Below are positions 659-62,931 of a DNA stretch of 64,000 nt, piece by piece. The translations under genes were made by a program, and so were the position numbers. The stretch comes from a virus, in IMG/VR virus record IMGVR_UViG_3300011113_000640, positions 124,001 through 188,000 of that record; one strand, written 5' to 3'. Numbering within the stretch: the stretch's first letter is position 1; each line of letters begins with the position of its first letter. The notes under the pieces were generated by a model, which saw nothing but the letters and a program-made list of their open reading frames with translations, did no database searches and was not told the DNA's origin.

Positions 659-1036
659 ATGAGCACTGAATTTTTTGCCCAACTAGCGGAAAAATATCCG
701 TTTATCACCTTGTGTGTGTATGCTACCACGGAATATGTGGGCATCATACAGAATCAAGACGATGCTATAACCACCATCTATGATTTTGGAGCCATACAAG
801 ATCTAGCAATCAAACGCAGATTTCTTGAGCTGGCCAACGTTTGGTGGTGGGAAAGCAATAGAACTGTGCCTATAAACATATTCTTGAAAGGTGAGTGGGA
901 CGTGTTCCGCCCCTATCTGCGTACATTTACCAACAAGGACCTGGAAATCCTGCACGGGCCCATATGCAGTCTCAGTGAAATGAGCCGCAAAAAAAGCAAG
1001 AGAAAAAGTATTACCTTAGTTCGGCGTGTTGAGTAG
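659..1036 (+). CDS. Conserved-looking hypothetical protein, 125 aa
   Basis: This is a complete plus-strand ORF between a divergent virion gene and a convergent minus-strand gene; its last 21 bases overlap the 3' end of the DnaE-like gene. The protein is soluble, aromatic-rich in the middle (VWWWESN around residues 60-67) and ends in a very basic tail (RKKSKRKS). I do not recognise a family. Support for it being real: ATG start, a late-type box 10 nt upstream, and no competing gene on the other strand over most of its length. The basic tail would suit nucleic-acid or protein binding, but that is only a guess. Confidence 0.6.
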   Translation: MSTEFFAQLAEKYPFITLCVYATTEYVGIIQNQDDAITTIYDFGAIQDLAIKRRFLELANVWWWESNRTVPINIFLKGEWDVFRPYLRTFTNKDLEILHGPICSLSEMSRKKSKRKSITLVRRVE

Positions 1037-1585
1037 ATTCATGTGCAGGGCTACCAAGGCCGCATAACTAATCGCATGTGATTTCTTGAACACAAATCCT
1101 CGGCTGTCATCACCGTCCCACACTGAGGTAAACACTTGCTCCCAAGGCAGATTCTGTAGGTGTGCTTTGCCGGGTCTAATAATAGATATGAAAGCTGCCA
1201 TCCTAGGGATGCTGTCAGGGCGCATGGTTTTTAACAGTTCTGTATAGTTGCCCACGTGCACCAGTTGGCCTGCCCAATCCGAGTCGGTCCGTAGTCGCGA
1301 CCAAGGTGGTTCCAGGGCCAACATCGCTTCATAGTGTGATGGACTCTTTATCAGTTGATACACACTCATGTTCAGCAGATCGATCTTGAAATAACCCAAC
1401 TGTTCGGCTGTTTCGTAGTCTATGGCCGCACAGGCATTAACAGGATCCTGGGGTATGTCTGTGACATATATGCCACTGTTGTGACGACGCACCTGTCCTT
1501 GATTGATTTGTCGTGCTGGAACAGATTGTATCAATCGCAACAACTGATCTCTGTCAGCCAAGTCGATGTCAATGTCTGCGCTCAT
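1016..1585 (-). CDS. Miniature DNA polymerase III alpha (DnaE)-like protein, 189 aa
   Basis: The protein carries scattered signature blocks of bacterial C-family polymerases in the right order. Residues 3-13 (ADIDIDLADRD) match the DnaE PD-x-D-x-D-F active-site strand with acidic residues D6 and D8. Residues 64-71 (GYFKIDLL) match the KFD-LGL strand carrying the third catalytic Asp (D69). Residues 124-140 match the DnaE segment ending in ALYRPG (here SIIRPGK), and 166-175 (FKKSHAISYA) match FNKSHA-AYA. Bacterial DnaE is around 1,000-1,200 residues; this has no PHP, OB or beta-binding domain and only short links between palm motifs. It ends an operon led by uvsW and starts 4 nt inside the preceding gene. 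Homology is well supported by motif order; polymerase activity is unproven. Confidence 0.75.
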   Translation of the reverse strand: MSADIDIDLADRDQLLRLIQSVPARQINQGQVRRHNSGIYVTDIPQDPVNACAAIDYETAEQLGYFKIDLLNMSVYQLIKSPSHYEAMLALEPPWSRLRTDSDWAGQLVHVGNYTELLKTMRPDSIPRMAAFISIIRPGKAHLQNLPWEQVFTSVWDGDDSRGFVFKKSHAISYAALVALHMNLLNTPN

Positions 1586-4399: not shown

Positions 4400-5857
4400 T
4401 TATTTCCAAGATAACTTTTCCTGGGTAAATGGATAGTTGGCTTCCTTATAGAAAGTCTTGCGTTTGGTTAGATGACGTTTGGCAAATCTACAGGTACTGG
4501 TCACATCCCAGATCTGCACATGGTCTTTGTCTTCGGCTTTTCTAATGCCGCGTCCAATTGATTGAATAACTCGCACAAAGCTCTTTCCTGGTTCCACCAA
4601 CACAAGATTAAAAATTCTAGGTATATTGATACCCACGGCAGCCACACCATAAGTGGCCACGATAATCTTGCCATCGGCTACAGCCACTTCGTCGTATTCA
4701 TCTTGTCTATCCTTGGCCTTGGTTGCACCCGATACAAACACCGCATCCTTGAGTTGTTCTACCAAGGCCTGTCCTGCGGCAATGCGATCCACCAACACAA
4801 GAGTATTGCCAGTGACATTGACTTGTCGCACTAGATCAGCAATGGTCTTGAGTCTGTCGGGCTCTTCTAACAGATACTTTAGCTCGCTTTGGTAGTTGGT
4901 GAACTCAGCATGGTCTTCTAGTTGTACTATGTTGACATGGCACTGGGCCAGCACACCTTGACTTTGCAACTCGCTGGCACTGAGTTTGCTGATCACAGGA
5001 CCCAGGCTTACCAACAAGCTCACACTTTCAAATTTTTCTTTGGGTATAGTTCCTGTGAGTCCCCAGCGTATAGGAATCCGACTCATTACACCAGTGAGTA
5101 GGGTTTTCAGTGCATCAGCCTTGGCCATGTGTACCTCATCCACAATCACGCACACCACACCTTCCAAGAATTCACCTATGGTGATCTCTGCTAGATCGTT
5201 CTTGGTATTCTTTAGTAACACGTTTAGACTTTGCCAGGTGCATATGGTGTGTTGACGTCCGAACTCTTTACGGTCGCCAAAGAACACGCCCACATCCAGG
5301 CCCATGTTGATGTAGTCTCGTTCTGTTTGCGTGACCAGGCTCTTGTTGGGCACAATCACTATGCTACGACCATAAGGTGTTATAGCATCAGATAAGGCAG
5401 CGGTCATCACTGTCTTGCCTGCTCCAGTGGCCACTTCTTGTAGACATTGTGGATTGGCCAGGAAGTTGTTGATGATTTCTACTTGATAGTCACGAAGCTT
5501 CATGGGCTCGCCCGCAGCAGGATGTCCTTTGGGCCAGGCTATGTGGCTGTAACTGTCCTCTGTGACCGGTGTAAAGTCAAACGTGGTCAAATAATCTCTT
5601 TGGTCGTCTAGGTCAATATCATAGTTGAACTTTTCTAATATGGGTATGATCTCGGGCAACAAGTTCACATAGGTGCTGCCACCCAACTGAAAGTAACTGA
5701 CTTTGCCATCCCAACGTCCTAGCCGCACTGCCGGCAAATATCTAGCATAGGGCACATCATATTTGAAGGCATTAACCAGACTACGACGTGCATCTAATTC
5801 AAGACCTTCAATCTTGATATTGACTTCGTCGCGTATGATTATTGTGGCTTTTTTCAT
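4400..5857 (-). CDS. uvsW: UvsW-like superfamily 2 DNA/RNA helicase
   Basis: A protein of 485 aa, close to T4 UvsW (about 500 aa). Visible helicase motifs: Q-motif-like region at 121-126 (LRDYQ), Walker A ATGAGKT at 143-149, motif II DEVH at 240-243, motif III LTGT at 267-270 and motif VI QSIGRGIRK at 432-440. The N-terminal ~100 residues match the UvsW N domain, which recognises substrate (KYDVPYARYLP, RLGRWDGKVSYF). UvsW unwinds branched DNA and R-loops and helps switch from origin- to recombination-dependent replication. It is transcribed leftward just after a sulfotransferase-like gene and upstream of the gp62-like gene. Confidence 0.93.
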   Translation of the reverse strand: MKKATIIIRDEVNIKIEGLELDARRSLVNAFKYDVPYARYLPAVRLGRWDGKVSYFQLGGSTYVNLLPEIIPILEKFNYDIDLDDQRDYLTTFDFTPVTEDSYSHIAWPKGHPAAGEPMKLRDYQVEIINNFLANPQCLQEVATGAGKTVMTAALSDAITPYGRSIVIVPNKSLVTQTERDYINMGLDVGVFFGDRKEFGRQHTICTWQSLNVLLKNTKNDLAEITIGEFLEGVVCVIVDEVHMAKADALKTLLTGVMSRIPIRWGLTGTIPKEKFESVSLLVSLGPVISKLSASELQSQGVLAQCHVNIVQLEDHAEFTNYQSELKYLLEEPDRLKTIADLVRQVNVTGNTLVLVDRIAAGQALVEQLKDAVFVSGATKAKDRQDEYDEVAVADGKIIVATYGVAAVGINIPRIFNLVLVEPGKSFVRVIQSIGRGIRKAEDKDHVQIWDVTSTCRFAKRHLTKRKTFYKEANYPFTQEKLSWK

Positions 5858-6791: not shown

Positions 6792-7811
6792 TTATGAGTT
6801 TTTCATGCAAGTGCTTGCAGCCAAGGCCTTCCAATTGTCAGCACTAACCTTGGTCAAGTCTGCTATCTTCAAGGCCATACGCAGGCTCATTTCACGCAAG
6901 CGGTCCTTGTTGGCATCCATGAAGTTGAGGATTTCGTCACCTTGTTCTGGGCTGAAATCATAGTCATTGAACAGTTGTCCTTGGCGGAAGATCTGCTTGA
7001 TACGCAAGAAACGATCACGCTGGGTGTTGAGTGTAAGATCCAAGAAGTGACAACGACTCTGCAAGGCCTCCAAATGGTCTTGCAATTTCTTGCTTTTGAG
7101 ATTGCTGAACTGCAAGTTGGTGATAAAGATGCAGGCACCTTTGAAGTCGAAACAGTCAGGCACACCTTCACGGCGCAACATGGCCGAATCTGAGTTCCAG
7201 TAAATTCTGCGTTTCTTGCCTGAGTCTAGGGCGGCCTTGAGAATGTTCAATGATAAGTCATCTTGGAACACCGAGTCGCAGTCGTCGAACACCAAGACAT
7301 TGTTGGGATCAGAGTGTTTGTAGAGAGTGCAGTAGAGACCAATTGGAGTCATGGCACCTTTGATCACTTCATACTTGATCTTGCGACCGCTGAGTTTGTC
7401 AAACAGACCAGACTTTTCCAATTGCTTTTCTACTCCGTAGCTCTTGCCCACTCCAGGAGGACCAACCACGATCATGGCTCTGACGTCACCTGCGATAGTG
7501 GCCTTGGTCATCTGATCCAGGATGTCAAATCGCTGTTCAATACGATCCATGACTTCATCATCGGTCTCCACCGGAACCTGAGCAGTCGCAGGGCGATCAG
7601 CAGTCATTGACTCGGTAGTAAACTCTACATCTTCGATGCTGTCTACTTTGACACGGACCACTTCGGGCACTTCTGGGCCAAAAAATCCATCTGCTTTCAC
7701 AGTTACATAGCCTCCCTTGGCGCCAGTTTGAAACCCTTTGACCAAGTTAAAGATCATACCGTTGACGGGTTGATTGCGATACGACCCATTTTTAACGAGA
7801 ATAGTTGACAT
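6792..7811 (-). CDS. AAA+ ATPase, 339 aa
   Basis: The N-terminal ~80 residues are a small beta-rich domain; the ATPase follows. Walker A is GPPGVGKS at 117-124, Walker B VLVFDDCD at 172-179, a sensor-1 Asn at 232 (IFITN), and a likely arginine finger at R253 (LQSRCHF). The C-terminal helical lid is at about 285-335. The overall layout is that of single-domain AAA+ ATPases in T4-like phages of marine bacteria, whose role is undefined. It is not the gp44 clamp loader (no zinc or collar pattern seen). It has a perfect-consensus sigma70 promoter, a strong SD (GAAGGAG, 9 nt spacing) and its own terminator, so it is an independently expressed, probably early gene. Confidence 0.8.
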   Translation of the reverse strand: MSTILVKNGSYRNQPVNGMIFNLVKGFQTGAKGGYVTVKADGFFGPEVPEVVRVKVDSIEDVEFTTESMTADRPATAQVPVETDDEVMDRIEQRFDILDQMTKATIAGDVRAMIVVGPPGVGKSYGVEKQLEKSGLFDKLSGRKIKYEVIKGAMTPIGLYCTLYKHSDPNNVLVFDDCDSVFQDDLSLNILKAALDSGKKRRIYWNSDSAMLRREGVPDCFDFKGACIFITNLQFSNLKSKKLQDHLEALQSRCHFLDLTLNTQRDRFLRIKQIFRQGQLFNDYDFSPEQGDEILNFMDANKDRLREMSLRMALKIADLTKVSADNWKALAASTCMKNS

Positions 7812-21645: not shown

Positions 21646-23207
21646 CGTAGTACTGCTATGAAGGGCATGGGCGGTTTTATGTCATCGCCATGGTCACGCA
21701 GTTGGTTGTTTATGGTGCTGTCATAGGTTTGTAGCAGTTGTAACATGCGCACTGCCAGCACTGTGCTCATGACAAGATCATCAGTTTCGCCGGGTTTGGC
21801 CGCATAGCCCATGCCTGAAGCCACAAAAGTTTTGAGCTCGCTGACCAGGCCCGTGCTACGGATTTTCATTCTGGCAGTTTCTACCAGCAATTTTAATTTG
21901 TTGCAGGCCGCCAGTTTGGGTTTGTTTGTGGTGTTGAATCCCTTGCGATATCTGCGCCCACTGCCCGTGCCGGGCTCACTGAGGAAATAGCCCTGTATGT
22001 TTTCTTCACCGTATTCGGCAATCGAAATCAAGGCCGCTTCGCCAATGGTGTTGTTTTCTATGCTGTAGTAGACTCGTTGAGGATCCTGCACAGTTTCGTT
22101 GATATGGGCACAGATACTGGCCAAGATACGCACCTGTTCAGGTATGGTGGTCCTGTTGTGCCGCCATTCAGCCACTTGTTCGGTGGTTTCTGCTTCAAAC
22201 ACCTGTATGGCTGCAGGATCACCTCCGGTGCCCAGGCTAGGATCCAGTGCGACCACATAGGTCCTGTCTTTTCTGGGACGCTGATACCAACGAACCTGTC
22301 CAGTTTTGTAGAGAGGTTCATGCCCTTGCAAGTCCAGGAGCTTGGCTGGAGCTATCAGAGTCTCATCATTGATAATGAATTCACACCCCATCTCTCGGCG
22401 GAAACGATCTTCACCCAGTTGCGCCCGTTGTTCAGCGGCCCAGGCTTCGTCGCGATCTGGATGTTCGTTCCAGTAACTGCGATAGGCTCTAAAGCCATTG
22501 ATGCCAAGTTCAGTGGGATTGCCGTAGGCATCCTCGCATTTGTTAGCGCCTTTCCACAACAAGGCAAACTGATCTTCATCTGAGTTGGGTGTCGACGTAA
22601 TAATGGCCTTACCACCAGTGGCCAAGGTAGGGCTGATAGATGTCCAAAACTCGCGAGCTATGGTGGGTCGCACGAACGCAAACTCGTCACAATATAACAG
22701 CGTAATACTCATACCACGACCTGTGTTTTCTGTTGTGGTGGTACTAACTATGCGACTACCATTTTCAAAATCCAAGTTGCCTTTGTTGTAACTGGTGACC
22801 CCGGCACGTATATGATCAGGGCACAGTTCGTAAGCATAACGGATACGTTGCATGATCTCCTGCGAGCCGGTGTACTTGTGTGCGGCAATCAAGATGGTTG
22901 AATCTGGACGGAACATGGCCATCCACAACAAGTAACCAGCGGCCGACGTTGACTTACCAGTTTGCCTGGGCATCATACTAATACTGTATCTGTAGTTGTG
23001 ATAGGTGTCTATCAAGCGTTTCTGATAGTCAAACGGATGATACAGCATCTTGCCCCGGGTAGGATGCTGTATGTAGAAAAAGTTGTCCATGAAATACTGC
23101 GGACCTGACACAGGATCTGCACAGGCCATGAATTCACTGAGTTGCTGGTCGGTCCAATGCTGGCGGCGATAAGGTGCTTTGACTAGGGTTGATTCAGTTT
23201 GACTCAT
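21642..23207 (-). CDS. 17: Terminase large subunit gp17
   Basis: 521 aa (T4 gp17 610). The ATPase domain shows a Q-motif-like PFDYQKRL near 58-65, Walker A MPRQTGKST at 79-87 and Walker B TLLYCDEF at 169-176 with the catalytic Glu at 175, then a TSTPNSDED coupling motif. The C-terminal RNase H-like nuclease has VVALDPSLGTGGD (D322 and D330) and GETDDLVMS near the end. gp17 powers DNA packaging at the portal and cuts concatemers. Small terminase gp16 is about 9 kb away at 32534-33031. The radical SAM gene overlaps its start by 4 nt (ATGA). Confidence 0.95.
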   Translation of the reverse strand: MSQTESTLVKAPYRRQHWTDQQLSEFMACADPVSGPQYFMDNFFYIQHPTRGKMLYHPFDYQKRLIDTYHNYRYSISMMPRQTGKSTSAAGYLLWMAMFRPDSTILIAAHKYTGSQEIMQRIRYAYELCPDHIRAGVTSYNKGNLDFENGSRIVSTTTTENTGRGMSITLLYCDEFAFVRPTIAREFWTSISPTLATGGKAIITSTPNSDEDQFALLWKGANKCEDAYGNPTELGINGFRAYRSYWNEHPDRDEAWAAEQRAQLGEDRFRREMGCEFIINDETLIAPAKLLDLQGHEPLYKTGQVRWYQRPRKDRTYVVALDPSLGTGGDPAAIQVFEAETTEQVAEWRHNRTTIPEQVRILASICAHINETVQDPQRVYYSIENNTIGEAALISIAEYGEENIQGYFLSEPGTGSGRRYRKGFNTTNKPKLAACNKLKLLVETARMKIRSTGLVSELKTFVASGMGYAAKPGETDDLVMSTVLAVRMLQLLQTYDSTINNQLRDHGDDIKPPMPFIAVLR

Positions 23208-62047: not shown

Positions 62048-62839
62048 TTAAGTCTTGTAGTTTTCTACGATAGCAAGATCCAGGTTGCCTGTGCTGAGCT
62101 GGCTGGTGCCTGCCCATGTGTCAACTTCGGCGCCCGACTTGGCTGTAACGCCTTCGTCGCTGAAGAAGTTGGCTGCAAACTCAACATCGTTGACCACTTG
62201 TGCATAATTCCAAACATCGCCGGTGTTGGCATTGCCACCTGTGGCACCGCCAGCAAAGTTCTGCAAGAACTTGTTGGTCAGTTTGCTGATTGGTGTTTCA
62301 GAAGAATCGTTGCTGAAGTAGCTGATGCTCATGTTACCAGCTGTGGGGCTTAAATCGCTGGTAAGAACACAGATACCTACTGCGTTTACACGACCAGAAC
62401 CTGTGGAGCCCAAGGCAGCTGTGGCTGTGAAGATGGTTCCAAGTGCTGCGTTTGGAGCACCATAGCTGGCCCAGTCTGTGTTGCCTACCACTGTGATACG
62501 ATAGGCTTGATTGGCTACCAAGGCTGTTCGGCTTGTGATATCTGCCACCAAGAATTTGTGTGAACCTTTTTGACGTATGATCTGTCCATCGGCTTCAGCG
62601 AATCCTGTCACAAACACACGACACTTGACAATAGGATAGTTGGTGCTGGCCACGGTAGGAGGCTGAGCTCCGCCAACCACGCCTAGATATTCCGTGGCCG
62701 AATCCCATACAGGACTAGGGTACACAGGTGCTGTCAAACTAGTTAGTGCATTGAAACCAATGTCTACACCTGGATTTGCACCGGTAGTAGAATTATAACC
62801 AGTTTCGATAATTTTTTTAATTTTGAGAGGACGTCCCAT
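62048..62839 (-). CDS. Virion surface or fibre-type protein, 263 aa
   Basis: Start ATG 62839 (MGRPLKIKKIIETGYN), chosen because AAGGAGAA lies at good spacing; the frame also extends to 62866. The opening MGRPLKI is a hallmark of a family of abundant structural proteins in aquatic T4-like phages. It has beta-rich segments KCRVFVTGFAEADGQI, QAYRITVVGNTDWASYG and GRVNAVGICVLTS, and a DVEFAANFFSDEGVTA stretch. A structured 92-nt leader and strong SD point to high late expression; maybe a head decoration protein. Confidence 0.65.
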   Translation of the reverse strand: MGRPLKIKKIIETGYNSTTGANPGVDIGFNALTSLTAPVYPSPVWDSATEYLGVVGGAQPPTVASTNYPIVKCRVFVTGFAEADGQIIRQKGSHKFLVADITSRTALVANQAYRITVVGNTDWASYGAPNAALGTIFTATAALGSTGSGRVNAVGICVLTSDLSPTAGNMSISYFSNDSSETPISKLTNKFLQNFAGGATGGNANTGDVWNYAQVVNDVEFAANFFSDEGVTAKSGAEVDTWAGTSQLSTGNLDLAIVENYKT

Positions 62840-62885
62840 TTTTGTTTTCTCCTTAAAGAAGCCCAATGCGAGTTCTAGTCGCTAC

Positions 62886-62925
62886 GCGGTGGGGTTAATC
62901 ACCGCATAAAACGCAGGATTGCGTT
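62886..62925 (-). promoter_or_regulatory. Tandem hairpins in the leader of the 263-aa virion gene
   Basis: GCGGTG-loop-CACCGC (62886-62905) and AACGCA-GGAT-TGCGTT (62910-62925), upstream of the SD. Such hairpins at the 5' end can protect mRNA. Confidence 0.5.
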
Positions 62926-62931
62926 GACAAG

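What the first reader, a model, noticed from the sequence alone, without database searches (positions are those of the whole stretch)
1016..1585. A 189-residue miniature of the bacterial DnaE polymerase core
The protein has, in order, the DnaE active-site acidic strand (DIDID, with D6 and D8), the KFD-type strand with the third Asp (D69 in GYFKIDLL), the ALYRPG-like segment (SIIRPGK) and the NKSHAxxYA segment (FKKSHAISYA). All three catalytic carboxylates are in place, but the PHP, most finger, beta-binding and OB domains are missing. T4-like phages normally use a B-family polymerase (gp43), so a shrunken C-family core at the end of a uvsW operon is unexpected. It may be a minimal nucleotidyltransferase, a lesion or primer tool, a clamp or DnaE decoy, or a relic kept for binding.
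Basis: partly seen in the sequence, partly recalled or inferred. Interest (0 to 1): 0.85.

Follow-up and report, generated by a model that had tools for sequence, protein, structure and literature searches.

The report
Half of a split phage polymerase
The small gene encodes one half of a stripped-down bacterial-type DNA polymerase whose other half is encoded about 100,000 bases away in the same giant phage; this split enzyme was already described from sequence in 2021, but no experiment showing what it does was found.

Summary
The ORF is real (window 1016-1585, minus strand, 189 aa) and DnaE-related, but it is not a stand-alone miniature. It is the C-terminal half of a two-gene, minimal Pol III alpha core, carrying the metal-binding aspartates, the template-binding part and the steric-gate helix. 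The N-terminal half (GRGSS nucleotide-binding segment, 170 aa) lies about 102 kb away in the same 320.5-kb virus record (22548-23060). It stops just before the point in DnaE where the 189-aa protein begins. All 10 virus records of at least 290 kb tested, and 8 of 8 reference jumbo phages, carry both halves on the same strand; PolB was found in all 14 of these searched for it. The C half is under strong purifying selection, and models of both halves match Pol III alpha first in the PDB. Iyer et al. (2021, PMC7824862) already predicted this split Pol III alpha in group 2.2 jumbo phages. Added here: the register D4/D6/D69 = E. coli D401/D403/D555 (not D6/D8); loss of the thumb and the R709/R710 finger stretch; and a third, single-chain 557-aa DnaE core in this phage. 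Function is untested; a second polymerase beside PolB is most likely.

The parts
1016..1585 (-). C-terminal half of the split minimal Pol III alpha core (189 aa, PHROG_11778)
1562..1576 (-). Codons D4-D8 (DIDID): D4 = E. coli D401, D6 = D403, D8 = D405
   Evidence: invariant in 68 + 13 sequences
1379..1387 (-). Codons K67-D69 (KID): K67 = K553, D69 = D555
1166..1177 (-). Codons R137-K140 (RPGK): R137-P138 = R639-P640
1064..1090 (-). Codons F166-Y174 (FKKSHAISY): H170 = H760, the steric gate of E. coli Pol III alpha
   Evidence: steric gate from PMC8485763
659..1036 (+). Convergent ORF (125 aa, PHROG_11637, unknown function) overlapping the 3' end of the C-half gene; an opposite-strand ORF overlaps the same 3' end in all nine reference-phage loci of the C half
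   Evidence: same position, homology between them not tested
4400..5857 (-). UvsW-type helicase, first gene of the co-directional run that ends with the C half
   Evidence: phrog_16 E 2.2e-75

Best explanation
The 189-aa protein is the C-terminal half of a minimal C-family (Pol III alpha type) nucleotidyltransferase encoded in two distant genes. The N half (170 aa, record C1:22548-23060, minus strand, outside the window) brings the GRGSS nucleotide-binding segment; the C half brings the metal-binding D4/D6/D69, K67 and a reduced finger with the steric-gate H170. The two chains most likely form one active site as a non-covalent heterodimer and serve as a second DNA polymerase beside the phage's B-family enzyme, probably in short gap-filling, lagging-strand or repair synthesis. 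Shown here: complementary halves, conserved pairing, purifying selection, invariant catalytic residues, fold match, and loss of PHP, thumb, R709/R710 finger stretch, clamp-binding and OB parts. Inferred: physical assembly, catalysis and biological role.
For: The N half aligns to E. coli DnaE 321-392 (E 1.8e-4; PF07733 33.4 bits over a cut-off of 23.9) and the C half to the segments from D401 onward, so the halves abut without overlap. Both halves plus PolB in all nine IMG/VR records of at least 290 kb and in the own record; both halves in eight reference phages, same strand in 18 of 18. Tree congruence r = 0.89. dN/dS about 0.08. Invariant catalytic residues. Models with pLDDT 91 and 87.5 whose best PDB matches are Pol III alpha. 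Replication gene neighbours. The same reading is published.
Against: No complex was predicted and no biochemistry was found. The finger stretch with R709/R710 and the thumb are deleted, and the N-half residue aligned with R390 is Glu/Asp, so dNTP binding may differ from DnaE. Foldseek E-values are modest (1.7e-3 and 3.4e-2; TM 0.31-0.43). Tree congruence is also expected from vertical descent alone.
Confidence: 0.68

Rival explanations
1. The two halves assemble, but the complex is not a polymerase: it is a catalytically weak or dead DNA-binding or regulatory module of the phage replisome, or a decoy of the clamp or of host DnaE.
For: Thumb, R709/R710 finger stretch and clamp-binding region are gone; PolB is present in every genome searched that is at least 286 kb.
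Against: All three catalytic aspartates, K67 and the steric-gate H170 are invariant across 68 + 13 sequences down to 33% identity, which a pseudoenzyme would not need. The clamp-binding region of DnaE is absent, so a clamp decoy has no obvious handle.
Confidence: 0.2
2. The C half acts alone as a minimal nucleotidyltransferase.
For: All three catalytic carboxylates are on this chain and it models confidently on its own.
Against: The GRGS segment is on a second gene that accompanies it in every near-complete genome examined.
Confidence: 0.06
3. The halves are joined covalently by protein or RNA trans-splicing into one chain.
For: The halves abut at one fixed point, as in split-intein DnaE of cyanobacteria.
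Against: N halves end at EFL[RK] and C halves begin a few residues before DIDID in 18 paired genomes, with no room for intein pieces; no Rfam intron in the flanks examined.
Confidence: 0.03
4. The ORF is a decaying relic of a captured DnaE.
For: Large parts of DnaE are missing.
Against: dN/dS about 0.08, near-constant length of 183-213 aa in 184 sequences, invariant catalytic residues, at least 591 contigs.
Confidence: 0.01

Closest known systems
Split minimal Pol III alpha of group 2.2 jumbo phages (Iyer et al. 2021, PMC7824862); PHROG_11127 (N) + PHROG_11778 (C)
   Same: Same two proteins, distant genes, N half nucleotide-binding and C half metal- and template-binding, with a family B polymerase in the same genome.
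   Different: No difference in kind. This record additionally has a third, single-chain 557-aa DnaE core.
Canonical DnaE / Pol III alpha (E. coli DnaE, PF07733 + PF17657)
   Same: Active-site aspartates, K553, H760 and GRGS conserved over the two halves together.
   Different: About 360 aa in two chains instead of 1160 in one; no PHP, thumb, R709/R710 finger stretch, clamp-binding or OB region.
DnaE of group 3.2 jumbo phages (phage G type)
   Same: Phage-encoded C-family polymerase.
   Different: One long chain with a PHP domain that stands in as the defining polymerase of that group according to PMC7824862.
Cyanobacterial split-intein DnaE
   Same: DnaE encoded in two distant genes (general knowledge; mentioned in PMC3919608).
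   Different: There intein pieces rejoin the halves into a full DnaE; here no intein sequence is present at the ends.

Membership tests
Split minimal Pol III alpha of group 2.2 jumbo phages | C-terminal half with the metal-binding aspartates as a separate protein | tested here: met
   PHROG_11778 E 9.4e-52; D4/D6/D69 invariant
Split minimal Pol III alpha of group 2.2 jumbo phages | N-terminal nucleotide-binding half encoded by a distant gene in the same genome | tested here: met
   PHROG_11127 E 1.1e-40 at C1:22548-23060, 102.5 kb away
Split minimal Pol III alpha of group 2.2 jumbo phages | Family B polymerase and T4-like helper genes in the same genome | tested here: met
   PF00136 in an 890-aa frame at C1:311188-312402; UvsW, DnaB-type helicase, primase, gp44-type clamp loader
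Split minimal Pol III alpha of group 2.2 jumbo phages | The two proteins assemble into one enzyme | not testable with these tools
   Complex prediction and biochemistry not available
Canonical DnaE / Pol III alpha | Palm aspartates D401, D403, D555 | tested here: met
   D4, D6, D69
Canonical DnaE / Pol III alpha | GRGS nucleotide-binding segment on the same chain | tested here: not met
   It is on the separate N half
Canonical DnaE / Pol III alpha | Thumb and R709/R710 finger stretch | tested here: not met
   55-60 instead of 147 residues and 26-35 instead of 115 residues between flanking anchors
Canonical DnaE / Pol III alpha | PHP, HhH/clamp-binding and OB domains | tested here: not met
   The two chains total about 360 aa and match only DnaE 321-392 and the palm-finger segments up to about residue 770; no such Pfam domain found
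Canonical DnaE / Pol III alpha | DNA polymerase activity | not testable with these tools
   Needs an assay
Split-intein DnaE | Intein halves fused to the two pieces | tested here: not met
   Ends of N and starts of C are short and intein-free in 18 paired genomes

The most novel reading that the evidence does not exclude
Because the thumb and the R709/R710 finger stretch are gone and the residue aligned with R390 has become Glu/Asp, the assembled pair may not be a conventional DNA polymerase but a new nucleotidyltransferase activity built on the C-family palm, for example primer synthesis or extension, terminal or gap-limited transfer, or transfer to a non-DNA acceptor.
Probability: 0.25. Interest if true: 0.8.

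Novelty: already known. Interest (0 to 1): 0.42.

Why it matters
If the two small proteins assemble into an active enzyme, they would be a very small C-family polymerase core (about 360 aa against 1160), working as a heterodimer in the same phage as a B-family enzyme. That would give a minimal system to ask which parts of Pol III alpha the chemistry needs, and what giant phages use a second polymerase for. The family is widespread (at least 590 viral contigs for each half) and paired in every near-complete genome examined, so the experiment is worth doing even though the prediction is in print.

Tried and rejected
Stand-alone mini polymerase: rejected as the main reading because the GRGS segment is on a second, co-occurring gene. 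Relic: rejected by dN/dS about 0.08 and invariant residues. Split intein or intron: nothing at the protein ends, no Rfam intron in L082, L133, L039 or the window. Cellular gene: only 12 hits in a collection of 84,980 species genomes, on contigs of uncultured bins labelled as unrelated organisms, most likely co-binned phage DNA. Single protein against PDB sequences gave chance hits only; even the family profile is weak there for the C half (best E 0.2), so the DnaE link of the C half rests on PHROGs, profile comparison and fold. A DnaQ-type partner, reported for CBB and Atu_ph07, was not detected in this genome with PF00929.

Full report
WHAT IS THERE. The ORF is at the stated coordinates on the minus strand, 189 aa, starting with the ATG at 1585. 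Alone it gives only a sub-threshold Pfam match (finger domain, E 0.2), but it matches PHROG_11778 'DNA polymerase' at 9.4e-52 and the full-length DnaE family PHROG_405 at 1.7e-6. Relatives sit in 90 phage records; those listed are jumbo phages apart from two short records (RaK2, PBECO4, CBB, PA5oct, Atu_ph07, SCTP-2, Vibrio 2.275, Phosso and others, 33-41% identity). At least 596 IMG/VR contigs encode a relative, up to 87% identical.

THE OTHER HALF. The window belongs to a 320,541-base virus record. Searching that record with Pfam DNA_pol3_alpha found two more places: a 557-aa protein (C1:46051-47724, plus) and a short ORF (C1:22548-23087, minus; 170 aa from its conserved ATG). The short ORF ends '...GVGRGSSVSSFVLYKLGVHRIDSLYYNLDITEFLR*'. 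It is PHROG_11127 and its family matches E. coli DnaE residues 321-392 (E 1.8e-4), that is, up to about nine residues before D401, where the 189-aa protein begins. It occurs in 87 phage records with nearly the same genus counts as the C half.

CO-OCCURRENCE AND ORDER. In twenty IMG/VR records, all nine of at least 290 kb carry one C half, one full-length N half and a family B polymerase; records lacking one of them are shorter and may be fragments. The two genes are on the same strand in 18 of 18 paired genomes, 30-120 kb apart in 16 of them (one counted across the joined record ends) and farther apart in Atu_ph07 and Phosso; 102.5 kb in this phage. Trees of the two halves agree (r = 0.89 over 18 genomes, 0 of 5000 permutations), which vertical descent alone would also give. 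In this phage the C half lies a few genes from a primase and a DnaB-type helicase, and the N half lies upstream of a GroES-like gene and a gp44-type clamp loader. Corresponding neighbours appear in RaK2 and 121Q.

ANATOMY. Profile comparison with DnaE gives E 2.4e-8 for the C half and 1.2e-7 for the N half. All of these are invariant in 68 + 13 sequences. That D401, D403 and D555 are the active-site residues and H760 the steric gate is from PMC8485763. The thumb is gone (55-60 residues instead of 147 between the D405 and K553 equivalents) and so is the finger stretch with R709/R710 (26-35 instead of 115). In the N half the residue aligned with R390 is Glu, or Asp in single members. That R390, R396, R709 and R710 contact the incoming nucleotide is my recollection of the Pol III structures, not tested here.

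STRUCTURE. The C half models at pLDDT 91.0, pTM 0.84, the N half at 87.5 and 0.70. Against the PDB, the twelve best matches of the C half are all Pol III alpha (E 1.7e-3 to 0.11, probability up to 1.00, TM 0.31-0.40), followed by a drop to noise at E above 1. The N half also matches Pol III alpha first (E 3.4e-2, probability 1.00). Among viral models the C half matches phage DnaE proteins. The E-values are modest, as may be expected for fragments with large deletions.

SELECTION. Among 17 close pairs the median dN/dS of the C half is 0.083.

WHAT IS KNOWN. Iyer et al. [quoted passage not shown] An earlier paper saw only a 'truncated' 172-aa protein in CBB, the N half by its size (PMC5259590). 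The present case is a member of that kind. No experiment on either half turned up in the papers searched.

MECHANISM. Most likely a non-covalent heterodimer that forms one minimal C-family active site, used as a second polymerase beside PolB in short synthesis or repair. Assembly, catalysis and role are inferred. The losses in finger and thumb mean that chemistry or substrate may differ from DnaE, which is the open and testable point.

Noticed in passing
Own record C1:46051-47724 (L081:1435-3108, plus), outside the window: A third polymerase: a 557-aa single-chain DnaE palm-finger protein (PF07733 E 3.1e-37, PF17657 E 1.4e-14) too short for a PHP domain. Of 20 related records only two have it (94% and 56% identity); closest annotated-collection relative is LR756508 at 36%.
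   Followed up: partly
Own record C1:45447-45884 (L081:831-1268, minus): An ORF that reads like a rubrerythrin lies next to the 557-aa DnaE gene; judged by eye only.
   Followed up: no
window 62837-62926, minus: Match to the Rfam cis-regulatory motif freshwater-2 (RF02980), 66.3 bits against a cut-off of 49.9.
   Followed up: no
window 6792-7811, minus: 339-aa protein with a GPPGVGKS P-loop, PHROG_1250 of unknown function, E 1.3e-86.
   Followed up: no
A2/A4 alignments, N-half position 167: The residue aligned with E. coli R390 is Glu in nearly all N halves (Asp in single members), while the last residue is almost always Arg or Lys; it may mark a changed nucleotide-binding pocket.
   Followed up: partly
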